A DNA stretch of 64,000 nt from the NCBI GenBank assembly GCA_002794775.1, contig NBAY01000003.1, forward strand, positions 558,001 to 622,000. The letters run 5' to 3'. The position numbers and the translations under genes are program-made. Source of the stretch: Porodaedalea pini. Lineage: Eukaryota > Basidiomycota > Agaricomycetes > Hymenochaetales > Hymenochaetaceae. The notes under the pieces were generated by a model. The model did no database searches. It worked only from the letters and a program-made list of their open reading frames with translations, and was not told the DNA's origin. Positions 1-56,172 of the stretch are shown here, one piece after another (the first letter of the stretch is position 1; each line of letters opens with the position of its first letter).

Positions 1-800
1 CATCAATAGAAGGCACCTCGCTGGCTATAGGAGAAGATGTCGAGGACCCTGGAATAGACGAGCTCGTAGGAAGGATGATGGACGAAGAAGGATTCAGAGC
101 CGGGATGTCGCTCGTCTCGATGCTATTGGACAAGTTCAGTGTGAGGTTTCCCGAGTCGAGGTGCAGCTCCAAAGTCACGTCTGGAGAAGTCGACATAGGA
201 TTGGCAACCCCCAACGCCCATATCGCGCTCTGAGCGACCGTATCGTCCTTGGGAACGGTGAATGCGAGGTTCTGTGAGGTGGTGGGTGAAAGCTGACAAG
301 TCGTACGTCAGAAATAGAACTATCTCAGCCATTAATATAATACTTACATCAATTAAAGGGCTGTATAGTGTCGCTATGCGGGGCGGATTTGGATCTGGGT
401 TCGGTTCGACTAATCCTGTGGCAGTCCTCTGCGAAAGCGTTACACTTCCGTCAGAGTTTGGCCACATAATGACCATTTTCGCGTCTGCCATCTGAGTTCC
501 AAACCCCCTGGAAGTGGCCCCAACGTGAGACGTCCTCTTGAATAGATGTAATAGAACGATACGCACATGGCTATCCATCCCAGCTGGTTTAAAGCAGTCA
601 ATTGATCTAAAGGCAGCCTCCTTAGTATTGGTTGACTCGTATAAGAGAGCGAGTGACTCACAAGTGACCGTACTAGAATTTACAAAGGCAGTCACACACA
701 TTAATTCACTGCAGAAGTTGTCGCCTTGTACACTATCTGCTAGAGACGGGCGAATAAAAGAGAGACAGAAAAAAATGACAATAGGCGGACGTAAGAACAT
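1..800 (-). CDS. DOMON-domain secreted protein (CDH cytochrome-like), partial
   Basis: The start at 800 opens a hydrophobic signal peptide (FFCLSFIRPSLA) followed by a Cys-containing mature N-terminus. Four exons can be joined in frame: 662-800, 567-606, 348-507 and 1-292, with GT-AG introns of about 55-60 nt. The joined product contains GWIAMGFGTQM and MVIMWPNSDGSVTLSQRTA, which are hallmarks of the DOMON/cellobiose-dehydrogenase cytochrome fold. The Met in the first motif is the usual haem ligand. The last visible exon ends in a Ser/Pro/Thr-rich linker, so the C-terminus lies beyond the left edge. It could be a stand-alone DOMON protein or the N-terminus of a cytochrome b561 fusion. The family call is secure; the full architecture is unknown. 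Confidence 0.8.
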
Positions 801-4888: not shown

Positions 4889-7132
4889 ATGGTTCCGCCC
4901 CCCAACCCGAAGCCATCTACTCTTCATAGAGTCAAATCGCTTAGGTCCTTAGGCAACATCAAGGATCCGACTAAATGCGACGAGTGTAAATACGAACTCC
5001 CATTTCACAGTCGCTCGTGTGTCTCTGGCGCGGCGAAACTCTGCACTCAGTGTGGACGCGACTCAACATACAACCACAACGCATCCGTATGCGAAGTGGC
5101 AAAGAACAATCAAGTCAACTGGTCACCCGACATCGAAGCGGACCAGCACGCCGCCGCTCTGCGCAAACAGGGAGACCTCCCTCCCACCCCCGACATCCTC
5201 TCCCAGTCCAGCCTCAAACGATCTCCATCCGAGGAGGAACACCACGGACGTGAAGCCCCAGGCAACCCCGCTACGATCGGCCATATCCCAGACGATAAAG
5301 ATGCAATGGACGCTGACGACGACTTATACGTCGACAGCAAACCCCCCCAACTCGACAACGATGAGGAGGATCCGGACATCGCCGGTGAAGATCCGGCCAT
5401 CGCCGAAGAAGTCAACAGAAAGTCACGAGAGTTGGCTGAGAAGTCGGTTCACGAACTCCGTGCCCTTATTAACCAAGAGACTTGGGCGTCCTCGATGCCC
5501 TTCTACGACGATCCAGCCATGATGGGCCGATATATGGCTAGCATCGCGTCATCCCTTTGCTTCTGGATAAATCGATCCAACACGTTTGACGACGAGACAG
5601 CTCGTGAAAATTATGCTAACTCTTCTCTCAATCAGTTTCAAACTACCTTCAAAATTCACGCTCCTTATTGCAAAAATGTTTTTGACAATATTTATCGCAG
5701 CCCTCAAGACATCCGAGAGGAACAGATCTCTGACGAGCTCGCATCCATGTCGCGTTCCATTTCTTTGCTTGTATCTATGGTTTCCACCCTTTCAGAGAAA
5801 ACTAACAAATTGGAAAAACAGGCACAAAACCCCACTAAACCCAAAGTCGCTTTTTCATCTAACGTTTCTACAGCTCCGAAAATCCTGCCAGACCCTCTCG
5901 GCGCCAACTTCATTCACGACCCGCGCTTTCCCCCACCTCCCCCTGTTGTAAAGCGTCGTGTTCCCGCCCCCAAAGGCGGACGCACTAACTACGCCGCAGC
6001 TATGGCCAACACCCGTATCCCAGGGTCTGGCTTCCGCATGGACACCCAGGGAACCATTCACGCACCGGATGGTTACATGCATTCAGAACACAACGCCCCT
6101 CGACCCGGCCTCTCCACGGCTATTTATACACCACCTGTCCAGTCCGTCGGCACAGATAAGGATGGGTATACCACTGTTACATACGCTAGGGCTGCTCAGA
6201 AAAAGCCCAAGCAAGTCCCTACCAAAGTCACCACTGTCTCCGCAGACCACCCGGACGGAGAGATTATTACCAAACCTATGGATCGGGCTAACGGCTCGGT
6301 CAATACTCGTGTTCGCAATGTCAAACGCATTTACTTCTCCCTTCCCGATAACCTTGCTGTCCGCCCTCTCCCTAACTCCATTAAGAACACCGTCCGCGCC
6401 GGACTTAAAGGTTCTGCAGAGTTCAAACACCTCGTTATTCTTAACGTCGAATACACGTCCAACGGCAATCTTTGTATTTCCTTCACTAATATTCGCCCGG
6501 ACTTTGACTCCACTTTTTTCTCTCTCTCTTCGCTCCTTAACCGCGTCATTAACATTAACGGCGCCAAAGTTTTCACCCCCTCTCCCCAGTTCAAGCTCGT
6601 TCTACCGGCGGTGCCAGTTTTCGACAAACATACCAACGTTCTTTATTCTGAACGCGACCTTGTTGAGGAACTATCCTCTCTCCCCCAATTCGAGGGACAG
6701 GAATTTCTGTACCCCCCTCGGTTCATGGCGTCCATCGAACGCCTCAACACTCTCGATTATTGCAACGTCTCGATCATTTTGAAAGACACTAACCGCTTAT
6801 CATTTGATCACTTTTTCCTCCAGAATAACCGCAATGTCCCTATCTTCGGTGTCATCCGACGCCTTGAAGAGATGCGGGCCCGCCCAACTATTTCCCAATG
6901 CGATAATTGCCACCGCTTGGGACATTCCTCCGTCAAATGTCGTTCAGTAGCCCGGTGTGCTATCTGTTCGGAACCCCATCGTACTGCAGTACACGTCGCC
7001 AGATGCGCCCCATGCACGGCCTCCAACAACCTCGCGTGCCAACATTTCGCGCACTGCATCAATTGTCAAGGCGACCATAACTCCAGGTCTTCCACCTGTC
7101 CAGCACGTCGCAACTACAGGCCTCCCTTCTAA
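4889..7132 (+). CDS. LINE ORF1 (Gag-like, zinc-knuckle protein)
   Basis: This is a 747-residue intact frame. The N-terminal part has CxxC pairs (KCDECKYEL, LCTQCGRDS) and acidic low-complexity stretches. The middle is Pro-rich with an RNA-binding-like region. The C-terminal ~80 residues hold a series of CCHC-type knuckles, for example CDNCHRLGHSSVKC and CINCQGDHNSRSSTC. This is the architecture of LINE ORF1 nucleic-acid chaperones, which coat element RNA. The stop TAA is followed directly by the ORF2 ATG (TAAATG), suggesting coupled termination-reinitiation. The start at 4889 is the first ATG after the presumed 5' end. Confidence 0.88.
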   Translation: MVPPPNPKPSTLHRVKSLRSLGNIKDPTKCDECKYELPFHSRSCVSGAAKLCTQCGRDSTYNHNASVCEVAKNNQVNWSPDIEADQHAAALRKQGDLPPTPDILSQSSLKRSPSEEEHHGREAPGNPATIGHIPDDKDAMDADDDLYVDSKPPQLDNDEEDPDIAGEDPAIAEEVNRKSRELAEKSVHELRALINQETWASSMPFYDDPAMMGRYMASIASSLCFWINRSNTFDDETARENYANSSLNQFQTTFKIHAPYCKNVFDNIYRSPQDIREEQISDELASMSRSISLLVSMVSTLSEKTNKLEKQAQNPTKPKVAFSSNVSTAPKILPDPLGANFIHDPRFPPPPPVVKRRVPAPKGGRTNYAAAMANTRIPGSGFRMDTQGTIHAPDGYMHSEHNAPRPGLSTAIYTPPVQSVGTDKDGYTTVTYARAAQKKPKQVPTKVTTVSADHPDGEIITKPMDRANGSVNTRVRNVKRIYFSLPDNLAVRPLPNSIKNTVRAGLKGSAEFKHLVILNVEYTSNGNLCISFTNIRPDFDSTFFSLSSLLNRVININGAKVFTPSPQFKLVLPAVPVFDKHTNVLYSERDLVEELSSLPQFEGQEFLYPPRFMASIERLNTLDYCNVSIILKDTNRLSFDHFFLQNNRNVPIFGVIRRLEEMRARPTISQCDNCHRLGHSSVKCRSVARCAICSEPHRTAVHVARCAPCTASNNLACQHFAHCINCQGDHNSRSSTCPARRNYRPPF

Positions 7133-8010
7133 ATGACCACAACCATTTCTATTCTTTCTCTTAACGTTCGTCTCTCCGAACCTACAACTGACCTTCTTTT
7201 TAAGTCTCTCTTTCAACGCGGCAACCTTTGCCCCGACATTCTTTGTTTACAGGAAATCCCCACTATCACCACTATTGTCCCTTCTAAAACTTCACCATCG
7301 GGTGAAAAACATTTTGATACCCGAAATTCAGACCCTTTTATTTGCGTTCTTCCTCCTCAATTTACTTCAATTCGCCCTAGCTGCACGACTTTTGTCCACC
7401 CGCGCATATCTCACCTCTTCAGCTCCCAGCCGCATCTTTCCCGTCCCAATTGCCAAGTTACCATCAGCATTGATCGCAGCCCATCGCTTCCCCCTCTCTA
7501 CATTTGGAACATTTACAGCTCCCCTAGTTCCCATTCTTTTGAAGACCCTTTCCCTACCCCTTCTTCTGCTGACACCCATATTTTTGTGGGCGACTTTAAT
7601 CGACATTCTGCACTTTGGTCTGATTCCCACCTTTCTCGTTATTTCAATTCCGCTGAACCTTTTCTTCAATGGCTTGATAATTTCTCTTTAACAGTCGCTA
7701 ACCCCCCGACTGTACCCACTTTCCTGCATCCTCAAGGATCTTCAACCCTTGACCTTGTCATTAGCTCCCCAGACATTTTTCCCTTCATCAATCAGTCCCT
7801 CCTTATCGGCGACCCTTCATTCCAATTTCATTCGGATCATCTCCCACTTATATTTAACATACCCACCACATTCATTCCCCCCCCAGATACCCCGCCTCTC
7901 CGACTCGTTCGTAAACACGACATCCCTTCTTTAATTTCTGAATTCCGCAATTCCCATTTATTTTCATTTACCACTTCAGATATTCAACTTCCGGCGCACC
8001 TTGATGCCAA

Positions 8011-8015
8011 GTTAC
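8011..8015. repeat. Left 5-bp target duplication (GTTAC) of the chromovirus
   Basis: GTTAC immediately precedes the 5' LTR and recurs at 14153-14157 right after the 3' LTR, as expected for Ty3/Gypsy integration. Confidence 0.9.
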
Positions 8016-8201
8016 TGTTAGAACTCGAACCTTCGCCTTTTCCTTTATTTTCCCTTTACCATTTCTTTCCTTTTAACCGATCCTTTTTCATTATAATTAA
8101 TCATCTTTCCAATCACTTCCCACACTCCCTTCATATAACCTTCATTCGTTCCATTCCCACTCATTATGTAATGTTAGGTAGTATAGTCTCACGGTCGTCG
8201 C

Positions 8202-8208
8202 TATATAA
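8202..8208 (+). promoter_or_regulatory. TATA box of the LTR promoter
   Basis: TATATAA lies 33 nt upstream of position 8235, where the 11-mer complementary to the primer-binding site begins. The spacing fits a transcription start at about 8235. The same box recurs in the 3' LTR. Confidence 0.65.
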
Positions 8209-8234
8209 GGTCTCAGGAATCGCATGAACTCCTT

Positions 8235-8245
8235 GTTCTGCTTTT
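8235..8245 (+). promoter_or_regulatory. Predicted RNA 5' end, self-primer sequence
   Basis: GTTCTGCTTTT is the exact reverse complement of AAAAGCAGAAC at 8376-8386. Its position at TATA+33 makes it the likely first 11 nt of the element RNA. That is the arrangement of Tf1-type self-priming retrotransposons. Confidence 0.6.
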
Positions 8246-8375
8246 CCTCTTACCTCCGCGACGACCTAGCCTGAGTAAGCGTGTCCCGAGTCTACGCTCG
8301 AGTATAGCACGTCCCAGACGACTGTCAGCCGAGGCCTGCCCAGTCCGAGTAATCTCCCGGGCTCCCGCCTAACAT

Positions 8376-8386
8376 AAAAGCAGAAC
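8376..8386 (+). other. Primer-binding site (self-priming type)
   Basis: AAAAGCAGAAC starts one base after the 5' LTR. It pairs perfectly over 11 nt with 8235-8245. I saw no match to the initiator-tRNA-type site (TGGTA...) used by many other Ty3/Gypsy elements. Confidence 0.65.
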
Positions 8387-9084
8387 CTCACCCAGGCTCA
8401 TCCCCAGCGTACGTCGTCGCTGTCGACTCGCCTTCACTCAGTCTAGAGGAGCGCTCCCCTCGACGGACTTGACGTGTAAACCCCCTAAACGACAACCCTC
8501 AACCCTGCCCGGACGTTTTTGGACGTTTGTGTATTACATAATTATATCAACCGACATTTCCCGACCCTGGCTTTACGAGTTAGCCTCTGGTGGAGCACGC
8601 ACCTAACGTGGACGTGGGTAACAAGACGAGTTCAAACCTCGACGACAATCTCGTTTGTAATCTCGCTCGGATCCTACCGCCTCGTCATCAACTTCGCTGA
8701 CGAACCCGCTCAACGTTGGCGTAACCCCGGATCGAACGCGCAACCGATCCCTGTTCCTCCGCCGACGTCAAGATAGATCTCACCGACGAACAGCAACGGG
8801 CCCTTCCTGCTTCAGCCCGTTGGGATCCAGACCGACCAGGCTACGTCGCGACCAATAATAGCGGCGTCACTCACGACATCTGGTGGAGTGAAATCCGGCG
8901 CAGCTGGTATTCATCAGACGAACGAGGGAGGAGAGCAAGGTGGCCCCCAGCCGCTCCGTCGTCACCTGCACCGTCAACGTCTACGGTCAACCTACCACCG
9001 ACCCCGGGTCCTTACCGCGAAACCAACAGAGACCCCTCACCGCCGACTCCTCCAGAACCTTCGACACCCGCACCCGAACCTGCG
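8387..9084 (+). other. Chromovirus leader with an ATG-less open frame
   Basis: This 0.7-kb leader precedes the first gag ATG. The gag frame is open upstream of 9085 back to about 8725 without an ATG. It reads protein-like (DIWWSEIRRSWYSSDERG, then a Pro/Ser/Thr-rich run). Translation may start at a non-ATG codon or after splicing, or the upstream part may be a relic. Confidence 0.5.
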
Positions 9085-10167
9085 ATGTCAACAGAAGGTT
9101 TTAGCCAACAGCAAATGGCACAGATCGCGGCCATCGTTGCGAGTGCCTTCACCCATCAGGCGAACAACGCCCCTGCACCGGTCGCGGCCGCTAACCCCCC
9201 GACCCCCAACATAGACGTCGCCCGACCACGTGAGTTCACTGGTGGCGACGACTACCTCGACTTCAGACGAGAAGTCCTTCTTTTTGTATCCGCGAACCCG
9301 AGCCGATACCCTACGTCGGAGAGTAGAATTTATGTAGCTCTCTCTTACCTGAAGGGTGGTAATGCGGCGACGTGGGCGCAGAACTACGTCGAGGAGTCGA
9401 CAACGTCGGGAATCGTCACATTCACCGACAGCTGGGAGAGATTCCAGGAACGACTCGACGCCTCGTTCGATGACCCGAATCGCAAGGAGGCGGCGCTGAA
9501 GGAATTCCGGGAGAAGGTTCAGAAGGACCTCACCGCGGACAAGTTCTTCCAACAGCTTGACGTCATCATCAAACGTGCGGAACTGAAGGACGACAGCATC
9601 ATCTGTGATCGTCTCAAACGCGCCATGAACATCGAAGTGGTGCGTGGAGTCCTGAGATCAACGCCGGTTCCGACGAAGTACGAGGACTGGAAGAACAAAG
9701 CCATCGAGATCGATCGAGGCGAACAACAGATCCGCGCAATCCAACGAGGCCGCCCGTTCATACCTCAGCCTCGCCCGCAACAACAACAAGGACCCCCGGC
9801 TCGCCGTCAGGTAGCGGCCCCTCACGTCGACAGACGCGACGCGACCGGCGTCACCTTTGGAGGCGCTGGTCAACCGATGGACGTCTCAATGAACGAGGCG
9901 CAACGACGACGCGCGTGCTGGATCTGCGGCGGGCTGGGCCATTTCAAGGACAAGTGCCCGCAGGGGAAGCCAATCATCCAGCGCATGCTGGAACTAATGG
10001 CACCAGGCGAACGCCGCATCCTCGCGGACGAGCTCGGCGCGATGAAGGAATCGGCCTTCGAGGAAGTCGTAGACACTCGGAGGTCGACGGTGGAGGACTA
10101 TGTGGAGGAAGAAGAGAATGACGAAGAGGTCGTCGACTCGCAGGGTTTTGCGAGTGGTCAGGCGTAG
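9085..10167 (+). CDS. Chromovirus Gag
   Basis: This is a 360-residue frame from ATG 9085 to TAG 10165-10167. It contains a capsid-like region (EFTGGDDYLDFRREV, SYLKGGNAATWAQNYV, FQERLDASF, KEFREKVQKDLTADKFF) typical of Ty3/Gypsy Gag and a single CCHC zinc knuckle (CWICGGLGHFKDKC). An acidic tail follows. The frame is open upstream of the ATG, so the native N-terminus may be longer. A slippery heptamer near its 3' end allows -1 fusion to Pol. Confidence 0.9.
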   Translation: MSTEGFSQQQMAQIAAIVASAFTHQANNAPAPVAAANPPTPNIDVARPREFTGGDDYLDFRREVLLFVSANPSRYPTSESRIYVALSYLKGGNAATWAQNYVEESTTSGIVTFTDSWERFQERLDASFDDPNRKEAALKEFREKVQKDLTADKFFQQLDVIIKRAELKDDSIICDRLKRAMNIEVVRGVLRSTPVPTKYEDWKNKAIEIDRGEQQIRAIQRGRPFIPQPRPQQQQGPPARRQVAAPHVDRRDATGVTFGGAGQPMDVSMNEAQRRRACWICGGLGHFKDKCPQGKPIIQRMLELMAPGERRILADELGAMKESAFEEVVDTRRSTVEDYVEEEENDEEVVDSQGFASGQA

Positions 10168-10186
10168 CCATCGGGGCGACTGACCA
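10143..10186 (+). promoter_or_regulatory. Candidate -1 ribosomal frameshift signal (gag-pol)
   Basis: The heptamer GGGTTTT (10143-10149) is in the exact X_XXY_YYZ phase relative to gag (G|GGT|TTT). A 5-nt spacer leads to a perfect 7-bp stem, TGGTCAG (10155-10161) with CTGACCA (10180-10186). The loop includes the gag TAG, and C63-G64 with C77-G78 can extend the stem across one mismatch. After a -1 slip, the pol frame is open from 10149 through the whole of pol. Confidence 0.7.
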
Positions 10187-13100
10187 AGAAGAACAAGAGA
10201 CTTCGAATCTGGAACCACTAAAATATAACCAACCGTTTGTACAATACGTAGATGCGAACGACGTCGATGGTTTTCCCGACTACGAAATCTCTACCGATGT
10301 GAAAGAAAGGGAGGAATATGAGCAGCTGTTCATGAGAGGAACTGGCGGACGCCAGCTGGACCTTCTCCTGAACGTCGGACACAGAATGGAAGGTGAAGTG
10401 AGGGAGGTGGACGCACACGCACTCGTAGATTCGGGATGTACAGGATCGTGCATTGACGTAAGGTTCGTCGAACGGTACGGACTGGAGACGAAGCGTTATA
10501 TTCGACCCCTTGCGGTACTCAATGCCAACGGCACACACAACGAAGCCGGATTGATCGAGGAGTACGTCGACGTCGAACTTACGATCGGTCACCATAAGGA
10601 ACAGATCGTCCTGGCGGTAACCTCACTGGCATCGTCCAACATCTTTTTAGGGTATGACTGGCTTCGTCGACACAACCCGGAAGTCGACTGGAAAACGGGA
10701 ACACTCGACTTTACGCGTTGCCCGAGTGAATGTGTGGTGGACAGGAACGTGGAGGAAGGCATGCGGAAGGTGTGGAGAGCAGTGGAAGAGACGAAGGAGG
10801 TGAGAGAGATGCGAATGGACAAGACGTCCTGGCCCGCATACCTCGACGACTACGCCGATGTTTTTAGCGAAAAAGGTTTTGAAAAGCTACCGGAACATCG
10901 CCCCTGGGACCACGTCATCGACTTGAAGCCCGACTTCAAACCAAGCGACTGTAAGATCTACCCGCTCACGCCAACTGAGCAGCAGTCGCTCAAGGACTTC
11001 CTCGATGAAAATCTAAAGTCAGGTCGCATCCGACGGTCGATATCGCCCATGGCGTCGCCTTTCTTCTTCATAAAGAAGGCCGACAAATCGCTACGCCCGA
11101 TCCAGGATTACCGTAAACTCAACGACGGCACGATCAAGAATAAGTACCCCCTCCCTCTCATCGACGAACTTGTTGATAAGGTCAAGAAGGCGAAGTACAT
11201 CACTAAGCTTGACCTTCGCTGGGGGTACTACAACGTCCGGATCCGCGAAGGCGACGAGTGGAAGGCGGCATTTCGCACGAACATGGGCCTCTTCGAGCCA
11301 ACAGTCATGTTTTTCGGTCTTTGTAATGCGCCGGCGACGTTCCAAGCGTTCGTCAACCACATCTTCAAGGAACTGATCTACGCAAACTTGATCATCGTAT
11401 ACCTCGACGACATACTGATCCTCTCAGAAACCATTGAGGAGCACATCGACACGTCGAGGCGCGTACTTCAGATCCTCCGGGAAAATGGCCTGTACTTGAA
11501 ACCGGAAAAGTGCGAATTCGATGCCAAGGTCGTTAAGTATCTCGGTCACATCATCGGCAACGGCGAGATCAAGGCGGACCCGGCAAAGACGGAGGCGATT
11601 GCGAACTGGCCAGTCCCACGAAACCTCAAGGAGCTACAACAGTTCCTTGGCATGGGTAATTGGCTACGACGGTTCATCAAGGACTACAGTAAGGTGGTCC
11701 ATCCGCTGACGTCGCTGACGGGCAAGAAGGACTGGGTATGGGAGACCGAACAGCAGGAGGCGTTCGAGGAGCTGAGACGACGTCTCTGCTCACCTCCAGT
11801 CCTGGCCATCGCCAACGACGAGGGCCCTTTCCGCGTTGAGGCGGACTCGTCGAACTTCGCACTCGGAGGCGTGCTGTTGCAGAAACAGGAAGGCAAATGG
11901 AGGGTAGTCGCTTATAGGTCAGAAGCGCTCCTACCGGCCGAACGAAACTACGAGATCTACGACAAGGAAATGCTCGCCATCGTCTCGGCACTCAAGGAAT
12001 GGCGTCAATACCTCCTGGGCGCTCGCCACAAGATCGAGATCTGGTCCGACCATGCCAACCTCACCTACTTCAGGTCGGCACAGAAACTGAGCTATCGACA
12101 AGCTCGCTGGTGGACAGAACTCGAGGAATTCGACTTCCACCTCGAGCACAAGTCGGGGAAGACGATGGGCAAGGCGGACCTACTGTCACGCAAAGCAGGC
12201 TACGATGAGGGAAAGGATGACAACGATGACGTCGTGTTCATCAAGGACAAGTGGCTGAACCGTGGAGTGGTGAGGACGTCGCGTGAGGAAGTGTTGGAAC
12301 GAGTGGGTGACGCGCAGAGGGCGCAGGACGAGTCGGAAAGACCAACGGGAATGACGAAGGCCGACGGGCTGTGGCGGATGAAAGGCAAGGTGTACGTGCC
12401 GTCGACGATGAAGGAAGCGGTTTTACGGGAATGCCACGACTCGACCCTGGCAGGACATCCCGGATCGTCAAAGACGGTCGAACTGGTACGTCGAGACTTC
12501 TGGTGGGCGTCAATGTTCTCCGACGTTCGAGCATACGTCCGAGGGTGCGACCGTTGCCAGCGGACGAAGGCTCTGAGAACATCGAGATCAAGGCCGCTTC
12601 ACCCGAACACGATCCCGGAAGGCCCATGGGAAATCGTCACGGTCGACCTCATCGGAGAACTCCCAGACTCCAAGGGGCACAACGCAATCTGTGTCTTCGT
12701 CGACAGGTTCTCGAAACAAATGCACGCGATCCCGACGACGACAAGGCTGTCAGCAGAAGGCATGGCCCAGCTGTACCGAGACCAAGTCTTCCGCCTTCAC
12801 GGCTTGCCGAAGAAGATCATCCATGATCGAGGCACACAGTTTGACGCATCAATGATGAAGGAGCTGTACAAACTCCTACACATCGAAGGCAACCCGTCGA
12901 CGGCGTACCACCCACAGACAGATGGTCAGACAGAACGCGTTAACCAAGAGCTCGAACAGTATCTTAGGCTCTTCGTGAACCATCGCCAATCGGACTGGAA
13001 AGACTGGCTCCCCCTCGCAGAGTTTGCGTACAATAACCGCAAACATTCGGCGACGAAGATGTCCCCTTTCTACGCGAACACAGGACGTCACCCCTTGAGC

Positions 13101-13793
13101 TTTGACACGACACAAACCTCGTCTACCAACATGTCGGCGGAAGAATTCGCAAAACACATAAAAGAGACTCATCGTGTCGCGAAGGACAACCTGGTCAAAG
13201 CGGCAGACGACATGAAACGCTACCATGACCGAACGGCAGGAGCTTCGGTAGAGTACAAGGCTGGCGATAAGGTCTTCCTCAATGGACGAAATATCAGCAC
13301 AGATTCGCCCACGAAGAAGCTTGCCGACAAATGGTACGGTCCCTTTGACATCGTCGACAAAGTAGGAGCGAGCGCGTACAAGCTCAAACTCCCGAAACGA
13401 TGGAAAAAGGTCCACCCTGTCTTCAACGAAGCCCTGTTGAAACCCGCCGTCAAACCGTCCTTTGAAAGCCAGAAGCAACCACCACCGCCGCCGCCAGACA
13501 TCATCGATAACGAGGAGGAATACGAACTCGAGGAAGTCTTAGACTCACGCCTGCACCGAGGGAAACTACAGTACCTTGTCAAGTGGGTCGGCTACAATGA
13601 ACCTACCTGGCAGCCTGAGTCGGACTTCGGCGAGAACGCAAAGGAGGCGATCGCTGAGTTCTACCTCAAACATCCCGGTGCACCTCGGAGACTCGAAATC
13701 CCTCGTCAACGACTCCGTCCGCTCTTCGCCAACACCGAGCCAGACGACCGCGATCATGGTTGGTCGGGACGCCCAACCTTGAAGGGGGGGTAA
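10149..13793 (+). CDS. Chromovirus Pol (protease-RT-RNase H-integrase-chromodomain)
   Basis: The frame is -1 to gag and open from the slippery site; the first in-frame ATG (about 10330) comes late, so expression as a Gag-Pol fusion is likely. Domains in order: aspartic protease (ALVDSGCTGS), reverse transcriptase (KKADKSLRPIQDYRKLN, KLDLRWGYYNVRI, FGLCNAPATFQ, IVYLDDILIL), RNase H (VEADSSNFALGGVL), integrase with an H-H-C-C zinc finger (H at ECHDS and AGH, CDRC) and a D-D-E core (TVDLIG, IHDRGTQF, DGQTERVNQ). A C-terminal chromodomain (EVLDSRLHRGKLQYLVKWVG) likely guides integration to marked histones. No stop or frameshift was seen. The stop TAA abuts the 3' LTR. Confidence 0.95.
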   Translation, partial: CEWSGVAIGATDQEEQETSNLEPLKYNQPFVQYVDANDVDGFPDYEISTDVKEREEYEQLFMRGTGGRQLDLLLNVGHRMEGEVREVDAHALVDSGCTGSCIDVRFVERYGLETKRYIRPLAVLNANGTHNEAGLIEEYVDVELTIGHHKEQIVLAVTSLASSNIFLGYDWLRRHNPEVDWKTGTLDFTRCPSECVVDRNVEEGMRKVWRAVEETKEVREMRMDKTSWPAYLDDYADVFSEKGFEKLPEHRPWDHVIDLKPDFKPSDCKIYPLTPTEQQSLKDFLDENLKSGRIRRSISPMASPFFFIKKADKSLRPIQDYRKLNDGTIKNKYPLPLIDELVDKVKKAKYITKLDLRWGYYNVRIREGDEWKAAFRTNMGLFEPTVMFFGLCNAPATFQAFVNHIFKELIYANLIIVYLDDILILSETIEEHIDTSRRVLQILRENGLYLKPEKCEFDAKVVKYLGHIIGNGEIKADPAKTEAIANWPVPRNLKELQQFLGMGNWLRRFIKDYSKVVHPLTSLTGKKDWVWETEQQEAFEELRRRLCSPPVLAIANDEGPFRVEADSSNFALGGVLLQKQEGKWRVVAYRSEALLPAERNYEIYDKEMLAIVSALKEWRQYLLGARHKIEIWSDHANLTYFRSAQKLSYRQARWWTELEEFDFHLEHKSGKTMGKADLLSRKAGYDEGKDDNDDVVFIKDKWLNRGVVRTSREEVLERVGDAQRAQDESERPTGMTKADGLWRMKGKVYVPSTMKEAVLRECHDSTLAGHPGSSKTVELVRRDFWWASMFSDVRAYVRGCDRCQRTKALRTSRSRPLHPNTIPEGPWEIVTVDLIGELPDSKGHNAICVFVDRFSKQMHAIPTTTRLSAEGMAQLYRDQVFRLHGLPKKIIHDRGTQFDASMMKELYKLLHIEGNPSTAYHPQTDGQTERVNQELEQYLRLFVNHRQSDWKDWLPLAEFAYNNRKHSATKMSPFYANTGRHPLSFDTTQTSSTNMSAEEFAKHIKETHRVAKDNLVKAADDMKRYHDRTAGASVEYKAGDKVFLNGRNISTDSPTKKLADKWYGPFDIVDKVGASAYKLKLPKRWKKVHPVFNEALLKPAVKPSFESQKQPPPPPPDIIDNEEEYELEEVLDSRLHRGKLQYLVKWVGYNEPTWQPESDFGENAKEAIAEFYLKHPGAPRRLEIPRQRLRPLFANTEPDDRDHGWSGRPTLKGG
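13781..13790 (+). other. Polypurine tract
   Basis: GAAGGGGGGG lies three bases before the 3' LTR, overlapping the last pol codons. It is the expected plus-strand primer site. Confidence 0.7.
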
Positions 13794-14152
13794 TGTTAGA
13801 ACTCGAACCTTCGCCTTTTCCTTTATTTTCCCTTTACCATTTCTTTCCTTTTAACCGATCCTTTTTCATTATAATTAATCATCTTTCCAATCACTTCCCA
13901 CACTCCCTTCATATAACCTTCATTCGTTCCATTCCCACTCATTATGTAATGTTAGGTAGTATAGTCTCACGGTCGTCGCTATATAAGGTCTCAGGAATCG
14001 CATGAACTCCTTGTTCTGCTTTTCCTCTTACCTCTGCGACGACCTAGCCTGAGTAAGCGTGTCCCGAGTCTACGCTCGAGTATAGCACGTCCCAGACGAC
14101 TGTCAGCCGAGGCCTGCCCAGTCCGAGTAATCTCCCGGGCTCCCGCCTAACA
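13794..14152 (+). repeat. 3' LTR
   Basis: 359 bp, identical to the 5' LTR except T at 14035. It begins directly after the pol stop codon and is followed by the GTTAC duplication. Confidence 0.95.
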
Positions 14153-14157
14153 GTTAC
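14153..14157. repeat. Right 5-bp target duplication (GTTAC)
   Basis: Matches 8011-8015. LINE ORF2 continues at 14158. Confidence 0.9.
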
Positions 14158-17105
14158 ATTCCTTTTATACCTCCTTTTCTTCTTTCGCTTCTCGCTTCCT
14201 GCAAAAGCACAAACCCCGATCATACATCGGGCCCCACTCTTGGTGGACTGAGCAATGTAGTCGCGATTACCAAGCGCATCACAACAATCCATCTCCGGGC
14301 AGTCTCGCCCGACTCCAAAAAACCCTCGCCCTAGCCAAAACTACATTTTTTGGCGACCTCCTACATCGATCCGACCACTCATCGATTTGGAGACGAAAAA
14401 ATCTGGGTACCGCACGCCGCAATCACCCCATCGGCGCCCTCAGACTCCCTTCTGGGCGTTACACTCTTAACGAAAGCGAGAAGTCCAACCTTTTCCGCTC
14501 CACATTTTTTCCTGCGCTACCTAATGGTTATCGCAACCAACATTCGCTCCCTCTTCCGGTCGAAATTGAGCCGGTCTCAATCGACGAAATGCTCCGGGCC
14601 CTTTCAGGCACTGACGACGAAACTGCCCCCGGCAGTAATTGTTTCTCCTATTTTCATTTAAAACTTTTCATCGAATTCGAACCCGAATTTTTCTCTTAAT
14701 TTTTTTCTCTTTGCCTTTCTTTCGGCTACTTCCCATCATCTTTCAAACATTCGATCATCACATTCATCCCCAAACCAAAACGCTCCGACTTCTCCCTTCC
14801 CCGTTCTTTTCGTCCAATAGCCCTCGTGGATACGATGGGCAAACTTTTCGAACACATTCTTTTCAACCGTCTCCAAATTATATTCGAACAACGCTCTCTT
14901 ATTCCCTCTTCACAACATGGCTGCCGGAAAGCTTTATCCGCGCTGACGGCCTGTTACGAAGTTTTACACTTTAACAATTTCCAACCCCAAATTCATTCAC
15001 CTTCCACCTCAGCTCCAGGCCTCGGCCCCCGCGAGCCTCAATTCCGTTGTTTATTAACCTCCCTCATTACAATTGACATTCAAGGTTTTTTTGACAATAT
15101 TTCACACCCACTCCTTATTGACCGCTTAACTCGGTCCAACATTCACCCTAACCTCATCAATTGCGTTTCCCATTGGATGCGCGATCGACCCATTTCCCTT
15201 CACTTCAACCAATTTTTTTCAGAAACTTTCACCAAGCCTAACCGGGGCGTTCCTCAGGGATCCCCTCTATCCCCCCTTATTTCCATTTTCGCGGCTGCCC
15301 CAGCCATCGAAAATTACTATAAACAATTCCCTTATAATCGTCCCCTTTTCGCTTACATGGACGACCACCTTCTTGCCGCACGCTCTTTGAGTATGCGCAC
15401 CAACCTTATCCGTCTGCGTAACCAATTCTGCTTTCTTTCTTCGCAATTTTCACAACTGGGCCTTTCCATTGACCCAGATTCCGTCGAACTCATTCATTTC
15501 ACCCCCTTTCACACTACATCCACTAGCAAAGCCCCTTATTCATCACAGCCAGACAATCAACCATCTCTTATCCTATCACCATCCCTAGTCATTCGCCCTC
15601 ACTCCCATATTACATGGTTGGGTGTCATTTTTCACCATCAATTACTTCCTTCATTACACTTTCAGTCACGAGCTAACAAAGCTCTTTCTACACTTCACCA
15701 ACGCTCCTTTCTATTCCGCTCGTCTCACGGCGCATACCTTGAGTACGCCCGTCTTCTATACTTTAACCTTATTCGTTCTGTCGCCATATACGGCGCCCAG
15801 TTATTTCCTAACTCCCCTGCTATCCATTCATTTCTCAAACCGGTGCAACACCGCGCCATTTCTCTTATTTTGTCTCACAGCGTCGATAAAGATGCAGCCG
15901 GTTCTTTACTCTCAATCCCTCCTATTGATTTGTTCATTCAATACCAAGCCAAGCGCTTCATCACTTCTTATGTTTCATCCTGCCGCCCTTCTCTTCCTTC
16001 TTCTGCTGAAATCCGAGACTCGCTCCCGGCCGATATTCTTATTCCCAATTCCAATCTTTACCCAATTCTCCCGCCTATTCATTCGCGCCTTTCTCTAGTC
16101 CCCCTTACTTCTCGTAAAGACAGTCTCTTCGCTAGACGATCTTTCCTACAACTCTTTAACCACCCCCCTCCATTTCAATACTTTTTATTCACAGATGGCT
16201 CAGTCATTGAACGTGAGGGCGTTCCCATCGGCGGCCACGGTTTCTCCATCATGCATAACCGACGCGAACTCGCGTCCTTCGCTTCGTGTGCTCATACTCA
16301 GAGCAATATTCTATACGAAGAACAGCAAGCTCTCATTGCTGGCATCTCGCGCTTTTCCACCCTATTGGCGCATTGCACCCACCCTTGCCATTTGCGCGTC
16401 GTCTCCGACTCCGCAAATTGCGTCCGTCTTATCTTCTCGGCGGATTCACCCCACGCGACATTCATCACCGCCTTCCGCAGATTCTGCGGCATTTTCTTAG
16501 CACTGCACCACCCCGCGTCTACTATTGCGGTGCAATGGTTGCCCTCCCACATGGGACTACCAGGCAACTCGCGAGCAGATCACCTCGCATCACAAGCCTC
16601 ACAATCACAGCGCAAAACCCCAGCACCTGTCACATTACCCAATTTACACGCGCGATTTTCCACCGACCTTTTGGCCAAATGGCGGAACCGTGTCCTAAAC
16701 CTCCGACACCATCGCAGTGCTGCTACCGCGCCTTTCATCCTCTTTCCTAGGCGCCAGCTACGGCCCTTCCTGAGGCTTCATCCTGAGAAGCGTATCCCTC
16801 GCCATCTCCAGTCGAGAGCGATTGGCATCCTTCTCAACACCCACGATATGCATGACCGAAACCTACCACGCCGGTGCCCGGACCCCCTCTGCGCCAAACA
16901 TGACGTCCATCACATTCTCAACATATGCCCATATTTTTCACAGCTTCGCCGCCAATTTTTTCATAAATCGGTTCTCCCACTTTCATTTTCAAACTGGTTC
17001 GCCCCTTCTAACTTCATGCTTCTTATACAATTCGCATATTTCTCCTTTCGTCGCCCCCCCGACCCCATGCCTTATTATTCAGATCTTCCACCCGAACTCA
17101 TATAA

Positions 17106-29493: not shown

Positions 29494-31371
29494 TTAATAG
29501 AAGTCGGAATGCAGCTCAACGAGATCATTTGCATCATTGCCGCCGCAGATAATGCCAGACGTCCGCGCCAAATCTGTGTATGCCTTTACCTCCGCCCTGC
29601 TCATCCTAACGCCGGACCCTGATTCTTGAAGCGGCTTGTACAGCTGAGGCACCCTGATGCGTTTTATTCCTTGGGTACGAAGCTTCCGCATAACGCTAAT
29701 CAGTTGAATGAAGCGAGCGCCGCCACGGACTTGTGTGTGCCGTGGCACAGCAGACTGTACAGAGTCTTTTCCGACTAGAAGATTGGCACCTGAAGACAAT
29801 GCAGCGTTCACTTTCTGTCGACGAGAGGCCTTGACAGCAGCCTTGACAGTGGCAAAAGGTCTGTCACGACAAAGTGTGCTGAGACTGCCCGAACCGTAGT
29901 CCTGAGGATTGCGCAGAGATACCCAACCCTGACGGTTCTCCCAAAAGATGTCCGAGAAAAAGACGACGCTTGCATTTTGCGCAAGCTCAAGATAGTCTTT
30001 GAGTTCACTGACGCCAACGTCTTGATAGATGGTAGGCTTCGTCTTTCGAAGTAATCCTTCAAGAGTATCGCAAGACGTACTCATATGGCCATTCGCCCGT
30101 TCCTCCAGGAGAACCTCAATTAGGACAGTGAAGGTCTCTTTGCCTGCAGCTGAAGGGATAGCGCCAACCGTTCCCGCGAATACGAACGTTGATTCCTTAC
30201 CTTGACTCGGCCTAGATGAATCCCGCGATGCCAGTGGAGCTGAAGGATCGTATGGAGCACCGTGAGACGGAATGTCGTCAATCTCCATAATGGAATCGGA
30301 GCTTCCTACGTAGCCAATATATGAAGATAAACCAGGAGTGGCCCGCGTGGATAAATTATCCGAGAGAGACGGCAAACTAGTAGCAGTATGCGCGATAGTC
30401 TTTGCTATTGTTGCCGTAGCTGGTTGAGGTGGTTCATCTTGAGTGATATCATCCATATTGGTGGCCAAGACCGAGCACGAGGACTGCTGAATGTTCTTGG
30501 GATCTAAGTGACTGCCATCAGCATCACCAGAAGGAAGGCCTGCCTCATTCGATGTATCCATCAGGACTGGACGTCTCTCGGATGCATATGTGGGGTGCCT
30601 AGCAAGTACTGCAGATAAAGGTGTCGGTAATACTGCTTTCGAAGGCTTGGAAGGAATGGTCGAATGGGCTATTAAATGCTGTGGGACAGAAATGGATGCT
30701 TGGGGTTTAGGTTCTTGATCAACACGATCTGGAACAGAACCTGTCGATGCACGTCTACCGTTCGAGACGGCATCCTCGAAGTTAAGGGCTGAGCCTTCAC
30801 ATTGAAGCACTGTTTTCCATGCAAGTACTCCAGTCGCGAGATGCTTCAAGCCATTATGAGCACTCCTTCCAGAAGGAAAGATAACGAAGACGTCATGCCC
30901 TTTCATTCGAAGGACAGAAACAGCATAGGTAAAATCGCGGTCCCCTGTAATCAGCACGATGGAGGCAGGATCTTTGCATTCTAGTGCAAAGACCACGAGA
31001 TCAACTACCTCGACGCGTGAGCTCCATGCGAGCTTCAGCTTGATCAAACGAGCTTACCAAGAAGAATTCTATCTGCTACTTCTTTCCGAGAAGCGTGGGG
31101 ACAGTGCACAAGAGTCACTCCCGAAGCCTGCAATTCTGTCTGCTGGACGGTCTTGGAAGATGACTCCAGATGAACATCCACATAGGCTTTGAATGTCGAT
31201 ATCTCATCTCCAAGTGCCGCTGCAGCTCGCCGAACGTTGCCGGCCACGGTATAGCCAGACATACGAGCAGGTGTGCAACAATTTTCTGAAATGAACGTTT
31301 CACAACCATGACAAATGTTATTTTAGGCACGAGAATTCACCATAATCCCAGAAGATGCCAATGCGCTTCAT
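29494..31371 (-). CDS. NYN-domain protein A with C-terminal OST-HTH-like repeats
   Basis: Exons 31341-31371, 31058-31285 and 29494-31004 total 1770 nt (589 residues). The N-terminus is an NYN (PIN-like) ribonuclease fold: FWDYENC (first Asp), a KEVADRIL Asp and ITGDRDFTYA, so the acidic metal-binding set looks intact. A long Ser/Pro-rich low-complexity linker follows. The C-terminus has two winged-helix-like repeats (FTVLIEVLLEERANGH...; FIQLISVMRKLRTQG...) resembling OST-HTH/LOTUS domains. The layout recalls MARF1/limkain-b1, which targets RNA. It is the most diverged of three neighbouring paralogues, and is divergent from paralogue B. Function in fungi unknown. Confidence 0.8.
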
Positions 31372-32057
31372 TATGGGCTATAACTGGTCGGTCCCTAGGG
31401 TTAGGAGCAAGAGTCTTGTCGGCCTAATTTACAGCAATGTGCACCTGCGGAGGCTAAGATTCCTCACAATGAGGAAGAATATCTGCTGATCACTTGCCGG
31501 AAAAACCGTACAGGACAAGGATATACGTATTACTTGGAGGCTGGGTGGTAGCCGGAGGCAGGCAGTCACCAAAGATAGCGACAAAGATGAAGCACCGCAA
31601 GTCAGTGTGATTCAGCAAACATGAAGGTACCCTGCACTTACGATAACTTCTCCTTTTAAGAGAGATACATACGGCGAGGTCTTTGGGGAGAGAGAGCTTG
31701 AATGAAGAAGCTGCCAGTAGACGTTGGGCTCAAGATGGTACATTGGTAGTTAGCCGAGAGTGTGCGTCCAACAGCCAAATACAAATAAACATGATCTACC
31801 TTCGATCTTTGATGGATACTATATAAGGGAAAAATGACGGAACCAGTTTGAACCCGAAGGTCCATCATGATCACTACACGCCTGAGCCGTCAGGACGCAA
31901 TTAATACCCGTGTGCTGCACGTTCAAATGCTCAGGTGCTTTCAAGCGACTGCTGCCTCAGCTGTTCATCGCTGCAGCCACCCTTGTACCCGAAGCTGCTG
32001 AGCGAATGTGTTCTGTACCTCCTGCGCTCTACCCTGACATACTTGCGAAACTCAGTG
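31372..32057. promoter_or_regulatory. Divergent intergenic region of NYN genes A and B
   Basis: 0.69 kb between the divergent starts of two NYN paralogues. The longest frames are short and unconvincing. It must contain both promoters. A TATA-like TATATAA occurs in this interval (near 31821). Confidence 0.4.
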
Positions 32058-34254
32058 ATGACAACATCTTCGAATCAAGTTGCTGTCTTCTGGGACTTCG
32101 GTGAGTCATAACAAACCCAACAACTGACTTGAATGTCAATGTCGCATTAGAGAATTGTCGTCCGTCTTGCAATACCTCGGGAAGCAAAGTCATTGACAAG
32201 ATACGGTGTCTCGTTCAAGGCTTCGGAAGCATCACTACCTTTAGAGCTTACATCGACTTGTCGTTAGAGTGTGTGAATCCAAGATCAATCAGTTTACACT
32301 CCGACCTCCAGTCATCTGGGCTCACTCTCGTTCATTGTCCTCACAATGGGAAAAAGGACGTCGCGGATAAAATGATGATAGGTATGCCATTTGCTTGATC
32401 GAAATACACTTGTTAAGACCGTCTGCAGTGGACATGCTTGCTTCTGCAATCGACAGGCCGCCTCCCGCGAGCATTGTTATTATTACAGGGGATCGCGACT
32501 TCGCTTACGCAGCTGCAGTGCTCAAGTTACGAGGATATCGCATTATTGTCATCGCTCCTCCACACATTGCCCACTCAAGTCTGAAAGTGCAGGCGGACCA
32601 GCTGTATGATTGGCAGAAAGATGTACTTGGTGGAACTGATCCAGAAATCATCCCCACCATCCCCGCGCCTCTTAAACCCATCGCCTTAGCTAGCCTAGCG
32701 TCTCAGTCGAATGAAGTGCTACCTCCGACACACGTTACTCCCCCTTCCTCCCAGCCTAAAGGATCTCCGGTTGCCACTCCTCCAATAAACTCGTCGGGAC
32801 GATATGATCTCATTCCTGCATCGCTGAATGAGCCTGCGACTCAAGTACTTTCCGACTACCGTCTGAATTCCAGTCCGCTACCACCACCATCTTCTGACCA
32901 GAAACCTGTTTTTCTTGGAGCTGATCGCGGCGAATCAGAGCTTCAACCAGTAACTGAGGGTCCAGTAGACTCACTGGCACCTCCGATCTCGATATCTCCC
33001 GGAAAGTTGACACTTGTGGACGAGCTGTCTGCTTCCCCGAGACTGGATATGGAGGTAGCCCGGTCTAGAGAAACATTCAAACAACCCCAAGTCAGAATAG
33101 CTACAGAACCTCATCACGTTTCTTCGCCCCGTATCAAATCATCGGGAACACCGACAACTTTCATCGACTCCGAAACTTCATCGTTGTTATCAGGGACGGA
33201 CATTGATGGTCTAATACTGAGCATAGGGGAATCGCTCCCATCCGAGCCGGACTACTCATCGTATGACCTATTGTCGCCAAGTAGCAGTGATTCCGACCGT
33301 GAGATTCCGCCGAGCATTTTGGATTCGCCCTATGTCCAAGTCGAACTAGATTCAGACGAATATGGTGGTTCTGCGGCGAGCAACATATCATCTACTTTAG
33401 GGCCGAGCGGCAATGGGGCAGAAGTATCTATCGAGCAGGAAGATGCACCTCCATGCTTATTAGCAAACGTTGACCGACATCATTCTTGTCCAGCAGCCTT
33501 GCCGAAGTATTCATGTCCATCAATAGCGGCTTCTCAGGAATCAAGCCCTGCTATTGCGCATGCACCCGAAATCGAGAGCACTGCTTCCGAGTCACCCGAG
33601 GCTTCATCCACAGATACCTTTGCTTCTACACATAGCCCACCGTCTCCAACTCCAATCTCGAGACAACGATTCGACACACTCATCACATTCTTTATCGAGC
33701 GAAGGGCCTCAAAAAAAGCCACGCGAATTTACTCATCAGAAGTCGCCTCAGAGATCCTGAAGCGCGATTCCCAAGTTTACAAGAAAGCAGGTGTCACAAG
33801 GCTGAAGCCCTTCATCGAGGAGGCAAGGAAAGCTGGTGTCATCATCAGTCCCGGCATGGACAACGAGGGGAACACGTGGGTGGAGATAAATCCTACATTG
33901 TATCCCATGGATGATGCTTCACAAGCTACGGAGAACCCCGTTTCCTCGACTTCATCCTCGAAAGAATTTAAAACTTCCTTCAGCTCCATCCCTGAAGTTG
34001 TTGTCAAGGCAATATTTAATCCTCTCATTAACCGCCTCCGCATAGAAACCCCATCGTACCGTTTATTTTATTCGGCACTTGGCATGTTTCTCAGAGAGCA
34101 GCACCCTGGCTTGTACAAACAAGCTGCCGTCTCGGGCCTCTCCGCTTACCTTCGAAAAGCTGAGAAACATGGCATCGTCCGCCTTGGATGTACGACCTCA
34201 CAAGGGAGTGAGTGGGTTGAGCTCATGCCGGCTCATCGCAGTTCAACTCTTTGA
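32058..34254 (+). CDS. NYN-domain protein B with C-terminal OST-HTH-like repeats
   Basis: Exons 32058-32100, 32151-32381 and 32429-34254 total 2100 nt (699 residues). It reads MTTSSNQVAVFWDFENCRPS, then KKDVADKMMI and VIITGDRDFAYAA, the NYN active-site elements. A 300-residue Ser/Pro/Glu-rich disordered middle follows. Two C-terminal winged-helix-like repeats are seen: RFDTLITFFIERRAS through WVEINPTLYP, and NRLRIETPSYRLFYSAL through SEWVELMPAHR. Intron positions match paralogues A and C exactly (within the Glu codon of FWD[F/Y]EN, and before VDML), so these are gene duplicates. It converges with paralogue C. Confidence 0.85.
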
Positions 34255-34666
34255 AGGGTGGAGCTACAGTTATGCCGTTAGATATGTCGAAGGGAAGGAC
34301 AGAGTTGTGTAATGATACGTCGTCAGTGTATTTTATCTTTTTCACTCTTGTAGCTGGATTACATATTTCATGCTGTACTTATACACCAGAGAATTGTATT
34401 CACTGTTGGCTGTCTGCCTAACGCGCAGCAGTATGCCCGTCTAGAAGAAATCGTACAGTCGAAAGTAGGCACACGAACAATATGATCATTAAGAGGAATA
34501 AGATTACAGCGATTCGTCTGTGGTTGCTGCGAAAACGGCATTTACATGTATGTGCAGTTGCAAAGATACAAACTCAGTCAAGGAACGTTACAGTAAGTAC
34601 AAGTCGGCAAGAACATAGTATTACAGGAATGTTTTACTCCTACAATTTCATTACGATTGCGACGCT
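34255..34666. other. Convergent 3' intergenic region of NYN genes B and C
   Basis: 0.41 kb, AT-rich, with 3' UTR-like sequence from both sides. No gene seen. Confidence 0.4.
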
Positions 34667-54272: not shown

Positions 54273-56172
54273 TTTTTGTTTGGAGAACCTAAACTGACCT
54301 TTGCTGTAGTTTGAGCATCTCCATTGTCCCCATATTTTCTACGTATGTGTAAGCAATAAAAAAAAAGCTGGTCAACTGACAACAATTCTCAGACACGGAA
54401 TTTTGTATCAGATGATGTGTAATATAGTTTACAAATTACGCTTACTGCAGATTTGTAAGGCCATTTGGCAGACAGACGTCGGTGTTGATCTCGCAGCTTC
54501 GAGCCCTCGCCAAGTTTCTGTCGGAGGTTCATTCGACGATCAAAGTCGCGATCATGGCTTACAAAGGCAGCTACACGTAAATGCCTTCGGCGGGGTCTTG
54601 CTACACTAATCCATTAAGTATGCTGACTGTCCAGGACGTACTGTGTGGTTAGTCACTGGCAAAGGGAGGCGTATTTATTATTTAAGGGGGATGATGGGTT
54701 CCAAGACGGTTGAAGAACAGAAATACGACAGCGACTTAGAAACACGTTCACTTAGCGAAGATCTGATATGCCTTCGGTTTTCATTCTTGGAGCTACGGGC
54801 TACATTGGCGGTGCGTTCCCCCTATACACACCTCGGAACGGCTAATAATTATATCAACATCACATCCTTTGACAGGCTCGGTCGTCACCATCCTCCAGCA
54901 AAACTACCCAACCTTCGACTTCGTCGCCCTCGCCCGCTCTCCCTCCGCCGCCGAGTCTCTCTCCCAAACAGGCGTCCGTGTCGTCATCGGCACCTTCGAC
55001 GACCACGACACGCTCACGCAGCTCGCCTCAGAGGCGGACATAGTCATCAACGCCGCGGACAGCGACTCCATTCCTCTGACGGAGGACCTCCTGCGCGGGA
55101 TTAAGAAGCGTTGGGAGGCCAGCGGAAACGTCGGGACGCTGATCCACACGAGCGGCTCCGGTATATTCCTGGATGGCTCTAATGAGGGCAAGTTCGTTAA
55201 GGATGGGAAGGTTTGGACGGTGCGTTTTTCGTTATAGTTCATCCTTTATATTTGTCCTCCGTTGATTGGATGGATTCGCTGATCGTGTTGTTTAGGACTC
55301 TGAGGAGGACGTCAAACTGCTGACTACTTCTATGGTGCATGGGCAGGTGGACGTCCCGTACGTTTGCATATAGCCCACCCCTCCCTGTATATTATGCTGA
55401 TGCTGTCAATGTTAGGATTCTGAAAGCCGGTAATGAAGGCTTCGTCAACACGTACATCATTTGCCCTTCTGCCGTCTACGGTCCCCCGCTCGGAGTCGGA
55501 GGAGAGCGCAGGGTACCGATATTCATCAAGTTCATCGTTGGTGGGATATTGCAGCACAAGAAGGCGGAGGTGGTGAACGAGGGGAGCAATGTATTCGGGA
55601 TGGTATGTGTTCTTTATTCGCAGTCGAATTAACCTTTTTTCTAATCTTCATTGTTGTAATCTTAGGTCCACATCAATGATCTCATGGCCGTGTACACAAG
55701 CGTCTTCGCCTTGCCCTCCAGTCTCTCAACAAACCCGCTGAGACATCGTCGTTCTCGCGCTACTTCATCGCAAACACGTACGATGCCCCTCGGAAGACAC
55801 TTATAACCGTGGTCGCCAACGATTTGCAGCGACGCGGGCTGATCGCGAATGCGGAACTGGTTAGCGTGCCCGTCGACACGACAAAGCCATTTGCGAGGTG
55901 CGTACTGTACAGCAGCTCATTTATCTGCGTAGTCCAGCCCCCCTTTCGCTCCGTTCACGACTGACACAACAGTTTGCTACAGCCTGTTTGCTTCGAACTC
56001 GGTGTGCACCGCGCAGCGCGCCAGGGACGTGTTCGGGTGGGAGCCCAAGGAGCGCAAGTTCGAGGACGGCGACGTGGCAGCGGACGTCGATGCGTGTCTC
56101 GCCGCTCTGGCGTGAGCATGCGCGTCGGTTTTTCGCATTTAATTTTTCTCGTCTTGATTTCGCAAATGCCCT
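54273..56172 (+). repeat. Tandem duplication, copy 2
   Basis: Second copy of the 1.93-kb unit, with scattered substitutions and small indels. It contains the frameshifted paralogue. Confidence 0.8.
54768..56115 (+). pseudogene. Second NAD(P)-binding gene copy, frameshifted
   Basis: It starts MPSVFILGATGYIGG and keeps the exon-intron structure of copy 1. In the fifth exon, copy 1 reads GTCTTCGCCCTCGCCCTCCA while copy 2 lacks one base (near 55708-55712). This shifts the frame and gives a TAA at 55804-55806, removing the C-terminal ~90 residues including the FGWEPKERKFEDGD region. That last part is still well conserved in sequence, so the lesion is recent. It could also be an assembly or sequencing error. 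If truncated protein is made, the Rossmann core would remain. Confidence 0.75.

What the first reader, a model, noticed from the sequence alone, without database searches (positions are those of the whole stretch)
8202..8386. Tf1-like self-priming: predicted RNA 5' end pairs with the primer-binding site
AAAAGCAGAAC (8376-8386), one base after the 5' LTR, is the perfect reverse complement of GTTCTGCTTTT (8235-8245). That segment begins 33 nt after a TATA box, where transcription should start. Thus the first 11 nt of the RNA would anneal to the PBS, the mechanism known for fission-yeast Tf1, replacing a tRNA primer. Three independent positions (TATA, start, PBS) agree.
Basis: partly seen in the sequence, partly recalled or inferred. 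Interest (0 to 1): 0.75.

Follow-up and report, generated by a model that had tools for sequence, protein, structure and literature searches.

The report
Retrotransposon RNA that primes itself
A mobile DNA element in a fungal (probably basidiomycete) genome seems to start copying its own RNA into DNA by folding the RNA's first 11 letters onto a matching site, a known trick (fission-yeast Tf1) instead of borrowing a host tRNA; a second, clearly distinct element family in the same genome does the same with a different 11-letter sequence.

Summary
AAAAGCAGAAC (8376-8386), one base after the 5' LTR (8016-8374), is the perfect reverse complement of GTTCTGCTTTT (8235-8245), 33 nt after the first base of TATATAA (8202). 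None of 2000 shuffles matches it. The element (8016-14152) is a young Ty3/gypsy chromovirus: 1 LTR difference in 359, TSD GTTAC, gag, PR-RT-RH-IN, Tf2-1-type SH3 domain, chromodomain. The genome (53.3 Mb) holds 709 further exact pairs at wider spacing (control 0). All 33 loci examined keep both motifs. The decisive result is a second family (pol 54% identical, no LTR similarity): its different 11-mer AGTTTCGACCT, 35 nt after its TATA, is perfectly complementary to AGGTCGAAACT, 2 nt after its LTR (80 sites, control 0). The primer changed and the complementarity stayed. None of 40 tRNAs tested (of 59 hits) fits the PBS. Self-priming as in Tf1 is well supported, though transcription start and cleavage are inferred. 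The mechanism is published for the Tf1/sushi group and proposed for Tcn1 of a basidiomycete: a new member of a known kind. Tf1's flanking "pretzel" duplexes were not supported.

The parts
8011..8015 (+). target-site duplication GTTAC (left)
8016..8374 (+). 5' LTR, 359 nt, TGTTAG...CTAACA
8202..8208 (+). TATA box TATATAA
   Evidence: spacing of 33 nt to the primer also kept in diverged promoters of L037 (AATAAAAG) and L040, read by eye
8235..8245 (+). predicted start of R and self-primer GTTCTGCTTTT (first 11 nt of the RNA)
   Evidence: start inferred, not measured
8376..8386 (+). primer-binding site AAAAGCAGAAC, one base (T8375) after the LTR
9085..10167 (+). gag (PF03732 capsid; CCHC zinc knuckle just under its Pfam cut-off)
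10143..10149 (+). G GGT TTT, heptamer of the X XXY YYZ type in the gag frame, inside the gag/pol overlap: candidate -1 frameshift site
10122..13793 (+). pol open frame (1223 codons plus stop), -1 relative to gag: protease, RT, RNase H, integrase, SH3_Tf2-1, chromodomain
13782..13790 (+). polypurine tract AAGGGGGGG, followed by TAA (pol stop) and the 3' LTR
13794..14152 (+). 3' LTR (358 of 359 identical); second copy of the primer sequence at 14013-14023
14153..14157 (+). target-site duplication GTTAC (right)

Best explanation
This is a self-priming chromovirus LTR retrotransposon that works like Tf1, in a fungus that is probably a basidiomycete. Transcription starts at G8235. [quoted passage not shown] The RNase H of the element's own RT cuts after nt 11, and the freed 11-mer primes minus-strand DNA, with no tRNA. 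The missing 11 nt are recovered at strand transfer from the R copy in the 3' LTR. Shown here: the perfect pairing, its position, its presence in all copies examined, and its maintenance through a complete change of primer sequence in a second family. Inferred from Tf1: start site, cleavage and priming.
For: Exact 11-nt complement at the expected place, 0 of 2000 shuffles. 709 genomic sites with the pair 175-205 nt apart, reversed-pattern control 0; motif counts 1415/1403 against control 17/19. 33 of 33 loci keep both motifs; 0 of 22 motif columns vary against 68 of 204 non-CpG columns elsewhere. PBS exact in 98 of 100 listed sites (of 208) when left free, the other two not PBS junctions. Second family: AGTTTCGACCT / AGGTCGAAACT, TATA+35, 2 nt after the LTR, in both copies fetched, L041 and L042; 80 sites, control 0; pol 54% identical, no LTR or leader similarity. 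The unconstrained minimum-energy fold forms the primer:PBS duplex in 15 of 16 copies folded, of 40 available. No tRNA fits, 40 of 59 hits tested. Domains include SH3_Tf2-1 and chromodomain. The 11-nt length equals that published for Tf1 (PMC7175516, passages).
Against: No RNA data: the 5' end is inferred from TATA spacing and homology. The conservation evidence is uneven: the leader around the PBS is itself little changed (8 of 54 non-CpG columns vary), so the PBS alone does not stand out from its surroundings; the contrast comes from the R side. The two extra duplexes of the Tf1 pretzel structure were not above shuffles in 31 of 32 tests. One of 16 folded copies prefers another fold, without the duplex. 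Only two families were found; the other queries in this genome gave rows that look like the same two.
Confidence: 0.93

Rival explanations
1. A host tRNA (3' end or internal fragment) primes, and the match to the LTR is incidental.
For: Most LTR retrotransposons use tRNA (established knowledge). 19 of the 59 tRNA hits, and any tRNA missed by that search, were not examined; tRNA introns were left in, so matches across an exon junction were not tested.
Against: No TGG at the PBS. The best 3'-end match is 7 of 12; 203 of 300 shuffled PBSs do as well or better; the longest internal complement is 7 nt. Two families with different PBSs both match their own LTR at the same place.
Confidence: 0.02
2. 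The pairing is real but serves another purpose, such as circularising, dimerising or packaging the RNA or controlling translation, with priming by something else.
For: An 11-bp long-range duplex could serve any of these. Pretzel flanks are not supported.
Against: One partner begins 1 or 2 nt after the LTR in the two families, where a primer must sit to make a correct LTR end, and the other sits at TATA+33 or +35. No alternative primer site was seen.
Confidence: 0.04
3. Chance match, or inheritance by descent without function.
For: The copies share ancestry, so identical motifs are partly inherited; the leader next to the PBS is also well conserved.
Against: 0 of 2000 shuffles; 22 invariant columns against 68 of 204 variable non-CpG columns elsewhere; an unrelated primer in the second family.
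Confidence: 0.01

Closest known systems
Tf1/Tf2 of Schizosaccharomyces pombe
   Same: First 11 nt of the RNA complementary to the PBS (for Tf1: PMC7175516, passages); a chromodomain (PMC10085805, passages); here also a Pfam SH3_Tf2-1 match.
   Different: Two overlapping frames (gag, then pol at -1) instead of the single frame recalled for Tf1; pretzel flank duplexes not supported; start and cleavage untested.
Tcn1 of Cryptococcus neoformans (basidiomycete)
   Same: Ty3/gypsy element for which self-priming was proposed (PMC7175516, passages).
   Different: Sequence not compared here.
Tj1 (S. japonicus), Tosmo1-3, Tcry1
   Same: PBS complementary to the predicted mRNA 5' end (PMC4600332 and PMC10085805, passages).
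   Different: In Tj1 a stop codon ends Gag before Pol; here there is a -1 overlap with a G GGT TTT heptamer. The pretzel fold is reported possible for these elements and is not supported here.
Pol proteins of Sanghuangporus vaninii and S. baumii (P0001-P0003)
   Same: 72-74% identical over the RT-RNase H region.
   Different: Their DNA, LTR and PBS could not be reached; one scan of viral contigs with P0001 found no relative.

Membership tests
Tf1/sushi group of chromoviruses | PR-RT-RNase H-IN order with integrase C-terminal chromodomain | tested here: met
   Pfam gag-asp_proteas, RVT_1, RT_RNaseH, Integrase_H2C2, rve (just under its cut-off), SH3_Tf2-1 1.3e-16, Chromo 9.6e-08
Tf1/sushi group of chromoviruses | RNA 5' end complementary to the PBS just after the 5' LTR | tested here: met
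   Sequence level only: 11 of 11 nt at TATA+33 and LTR+1; second family 11 of 11 at TATA+35 and LTR+2
Tf1/sushi group of chromoviruses | no tRNA-complementary PBS | tested here: met
   40 of 59 tRNA hits tested, best match at chance level
Tf1/sushi group of chromoviruses | two further duplexes flanking primer:PBS (pretzel) | tested here: inconclusive
   31 of 32 tests in 16 copies not above shuffles; one long-form copy, L036, is
Tf1/sushi group of chromoviruses | transcription starts at the first primer base | not testable with these tools
   No RNA data; TATA spacing only
Tf1/sushi group of chromoviruses | RNase H cleavage between nt 11 and 12 frees the primer | not testable with these tools
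   Needs biochemistry
Tf1/sushi group of chromoviruses | RT phylogeny places it in the clade | not tested
   No tree was built; only Pfam domains and automatic names such as Tf2 polyprotein among homologues

The most novel reading that the evidence does not exclude
Between self-primer and PBS the long-spaced copies appear to carry an extra 66-nt unit (16 long LTRs read out, and the starts of the long forms listed) that looks like a spliceosomal intron (GTGAG...TACTAAT or TATTAAT...TAG), bordered by a 24-nt repeat. The window's element lacks it. Three single insertions with matching target duplications hold one LTR with and one without it. In the boldest reading the self-priming leader contains a removable intron, so that splicing resets the distance between primer and PBS and leaves a genomic trace of which RNA end each LTR was copied from.
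Probability: 0.08. Interest if true: 0.5.

Novelty: new member of a known kind. Interest (0 to 1): 0.3.

Why it matters
It documents self-priming by whole-primer covariation: two families in one genome use unrelated 11-mers, each self-complementary at the same two places. It shows that elements with exact self-primer pairs have reached nearly 800 sites in one fungal genome (709 and 80, the window's short-spaced form not counted). It does not change the known mechanism.

Tried and rejected
tRNA primer: rejected on 40 of 59 tRNA hits. Pretzel flank duplexes: not supported. Relatives in viral contigs: one scan with P0001, none confirmed. A third family: queries P0013, P0053, P0005 and P0012 gave rows that look like the two known families by identity and open-frame length; their LTRs were not checked. 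Splicing as the cause of the short LTR form: weakened because L032's short LTR matches the second repeat copy exactly (24 of 24, against 21 of 24 for the first, compared by eye), whereas splicing would keep the first, and because the opposite asymmetry (5' long, 3' short) also seems to occur (two cases by coordinates, TSDs unchecked). Repeat slippage during reverse transcription fits better. Motif conservation alone was first taken as strong, but many substitutions here hit CpG sites and the motifs lack CpG, so non-CpG columns were compared; on that measure the leader next to the PBS is also quiet (8 of 54 columns vary), so the PBS alone is not exceptional.

Selection to bear in mind: the 32 fetched copies were the 5'-junction hits of a similarity search in which only 40 of 1791 candidates were scored. 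The 34 rows were required to hold exact motifs, though no fetched copy failed that. The pattern demands CTC after the PBS and so leaves out copies with CCC there. One search's LTR boundaries were set by me. Searches used 16 of the 40 rows available.

Full report
Observation. The 5' LTR is 8016-8374 and the 3' LTR 13794-14152, with one difference in 359, ends TGTTAG/CTAACA and target duplication GTTAC. TATATAA starts at 8202, the primer sequence at 8235 (33 nt), and the PBS one base after the LTR. In 2000 dinucleotide shuffles no complement reached 11 nt (maximum 10 anywhere, 8 within TATA+25..40).

The element. gag (9085-10167) holds a retrotransposon capsid and a CCHC knuckle just under the Pfam cut-off. 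pol is open from 10122 to 13793 in the -1 frame and holds protease, RT, RNase H, integrase, a Tf2-1-like SH3 domain and a chromodomain. The overlap contains G GGT TTT in the gag frame; the motif CAGGGTTTTGC is found in 24 of 33 loci (not all 33 need reach that region). The best solved relative is the Ty3 Gag-Pol. The three best-scoring homologues are from Sanghuangporus, 72-74% over RT-RNase H, a genus of Hymenochaetales, so the host is probably a basidiomycete of that kind; the genome itself is unnamed (53.3 Mb). The element sits inside a non-LTR retrotransposon (endonuclease frame from 7133, RT/RNase H frame 14826-17105).

Copies. GTTCTGCTTTT occurs 1415 and 1403 times on the two strands against 17 and 19 for the reversed control. 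The pair separated by 175-205 nt occurs at 709 sites, control 0 (a self-complementary pattern, so both strand counts show the same sites). The window's own short form has 130 nt between them and was not counted genome-wide. All 33 loci (window plus 32 fetched) carry both motifs exactly, R to PBS 141-143 nt. With the PBS left free in the pattern, 98 of the 100 listed sites (of 208 in all) read exactly AAAAGCAGAAC; of the other two one is the window's own 3' LTR end and one reads like an LTR end followed by flanking DNA. Many substitutions in these LTRs hit CpG sites, so I compared non-CpG columns: 0 of 22 motif columns vary in 34 copies, against 68 of 204 elsewhere. Drawing 22 invariant columns by chance has probability 7e-05, or 1.2e-04 when bases are matched; both ignore relatedness of the copies. 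Split by region the other columns vary in 29 of 47 (U3), 31 of 103 (rest of R-U5) and 8 of 54 (leader), so the contrast is clear for the primer and not for the PBS alone. In L037 and L040 the promoter has diverged with insertions and deletions, yet the TATA-like box stays 33 nt before GTTCTGC (read by eye), which supports a start there.

Second family. A homologous pol (P0042) picked out another family. Two copies were fetched. LTRs are TGTCATGG...CGCTGACA, 424 and 447 nt, with TSDs AGTGA and GGAAG. Starting 2 nt after the LTR, AGGTCGAAACT is the perfect complement of AGTTTCGACCT, 35 nt after the start of TATATAA. In shuffles 11 nt or more was reached anywhere in the LTR 0 of 2000 times (L041) and once of 2000 (L042), and never within TATA+25..40. 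The pair occurs at 80 sites, control 0. Pol is 54% identical to the window's, LTR and leader show no nucleotide similarity, and each family's PBS finds at most 6 nt in the other's LTR. The primer has been replaced and the complementarity kept, which is the strongest evidence available from sequence.

Alternatives. Forty of 59 tRNA hits were fetched; the best 3'-end match to either PBS is 7 of 12, at the level of shuffled PBSs, and the longest internal match is 7 nt (tRNA introns left in). In free folding the primer:PBS duplex forms in 15 of 16 copies folded, out of 40 available, with mean pair probability 0.88-0.97 in those 15 and 0.00 in the other. The two further duplexes of the Tf1 pretzel were tested in the same 16 copies: 1 of 32 tests beat shuffles, so this part of the Tf1 model is not supported here.

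Comparison with the literature. For Tf1 the first 11 bases pair with the PBS and RNase H cuts between bases 11 and 12, and Tcn1 of Cryptococcus neoformans was proposed to self-prime (PMC7175516, passages). Self-priming is described as a common feature of the Tf1/sushi group (PMC10085805, passages), proposed for Tj1 (PMC4600332, passages) and predicted for 12% of plant LTR elements surveyed (PMC6317226, passages). It was looked for and not found in a Tcn1-like element of a spikemoss (PMC2864245, passages). A survey of fungal LTR elements has no occurrence of PBS or self-priming in its main text (PMC3248453, term search and passages). Listings for self-priming terms held 6, 4, 17, 2 and 3 papers, and one for Hymenochaetales with Gypsy terms showed 12 of 228. 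I saw no report of this element in those listings, titles and passages, but most subscription papers are not held, so absence from print is not shown. The finding is a well-supported new member of a known kind.

Noticed in passing
LTRs of L017, L024, L032 (5' short, 3' long); G000 C1:137428-143302 and an element nested in the L011 region on C6 (5' long, 3' short): Long-form LTRs carry an extra 66 nt between primer and PBS (GTGAG...AAT plus a second copy of a 24-nt repeat) that resembles an intron. L017, L024 and L032 are single insertions (matching TSDs) whose two LTRs differ by this unit; the two opposite cases rest on coordinates only. Short forms share variants with different long forms (by eye), so the loss seems recurrent.
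   Followed up: partly
10143-10149: G GGT TTT heptamer in the gag/pol overlap, a candidate -1 frameshift site; motif found in 24 of 33 loci.
   Followed up: partly
4889-8010 and 14826-17105: The LTR element is nested in a non-LTR retrotransposon with endonuclease, RT and RNase H; its first ORF (747 aa, no Pfam match) abuts the second (7132/7133).
   Followed up: no
29494-36496: Three neighbouring reading frames, each matching part of the NYN nuclease domain.
   Followed up: no
52419-56008: Direct repeats about 1.9 kb apart, pieces 90-93% identical, probably a tandem duplication.
   Followed up: no
13782-13793 and second family L041/L042: In both families 3 nt (TAA or TCA) lie between the polypurine tract and the 3' LTR, while 1 or 2 nt lie between the 5' LTR and the PBS, so unintegrated DNA ends would be asymmetric.
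   Followed up: no
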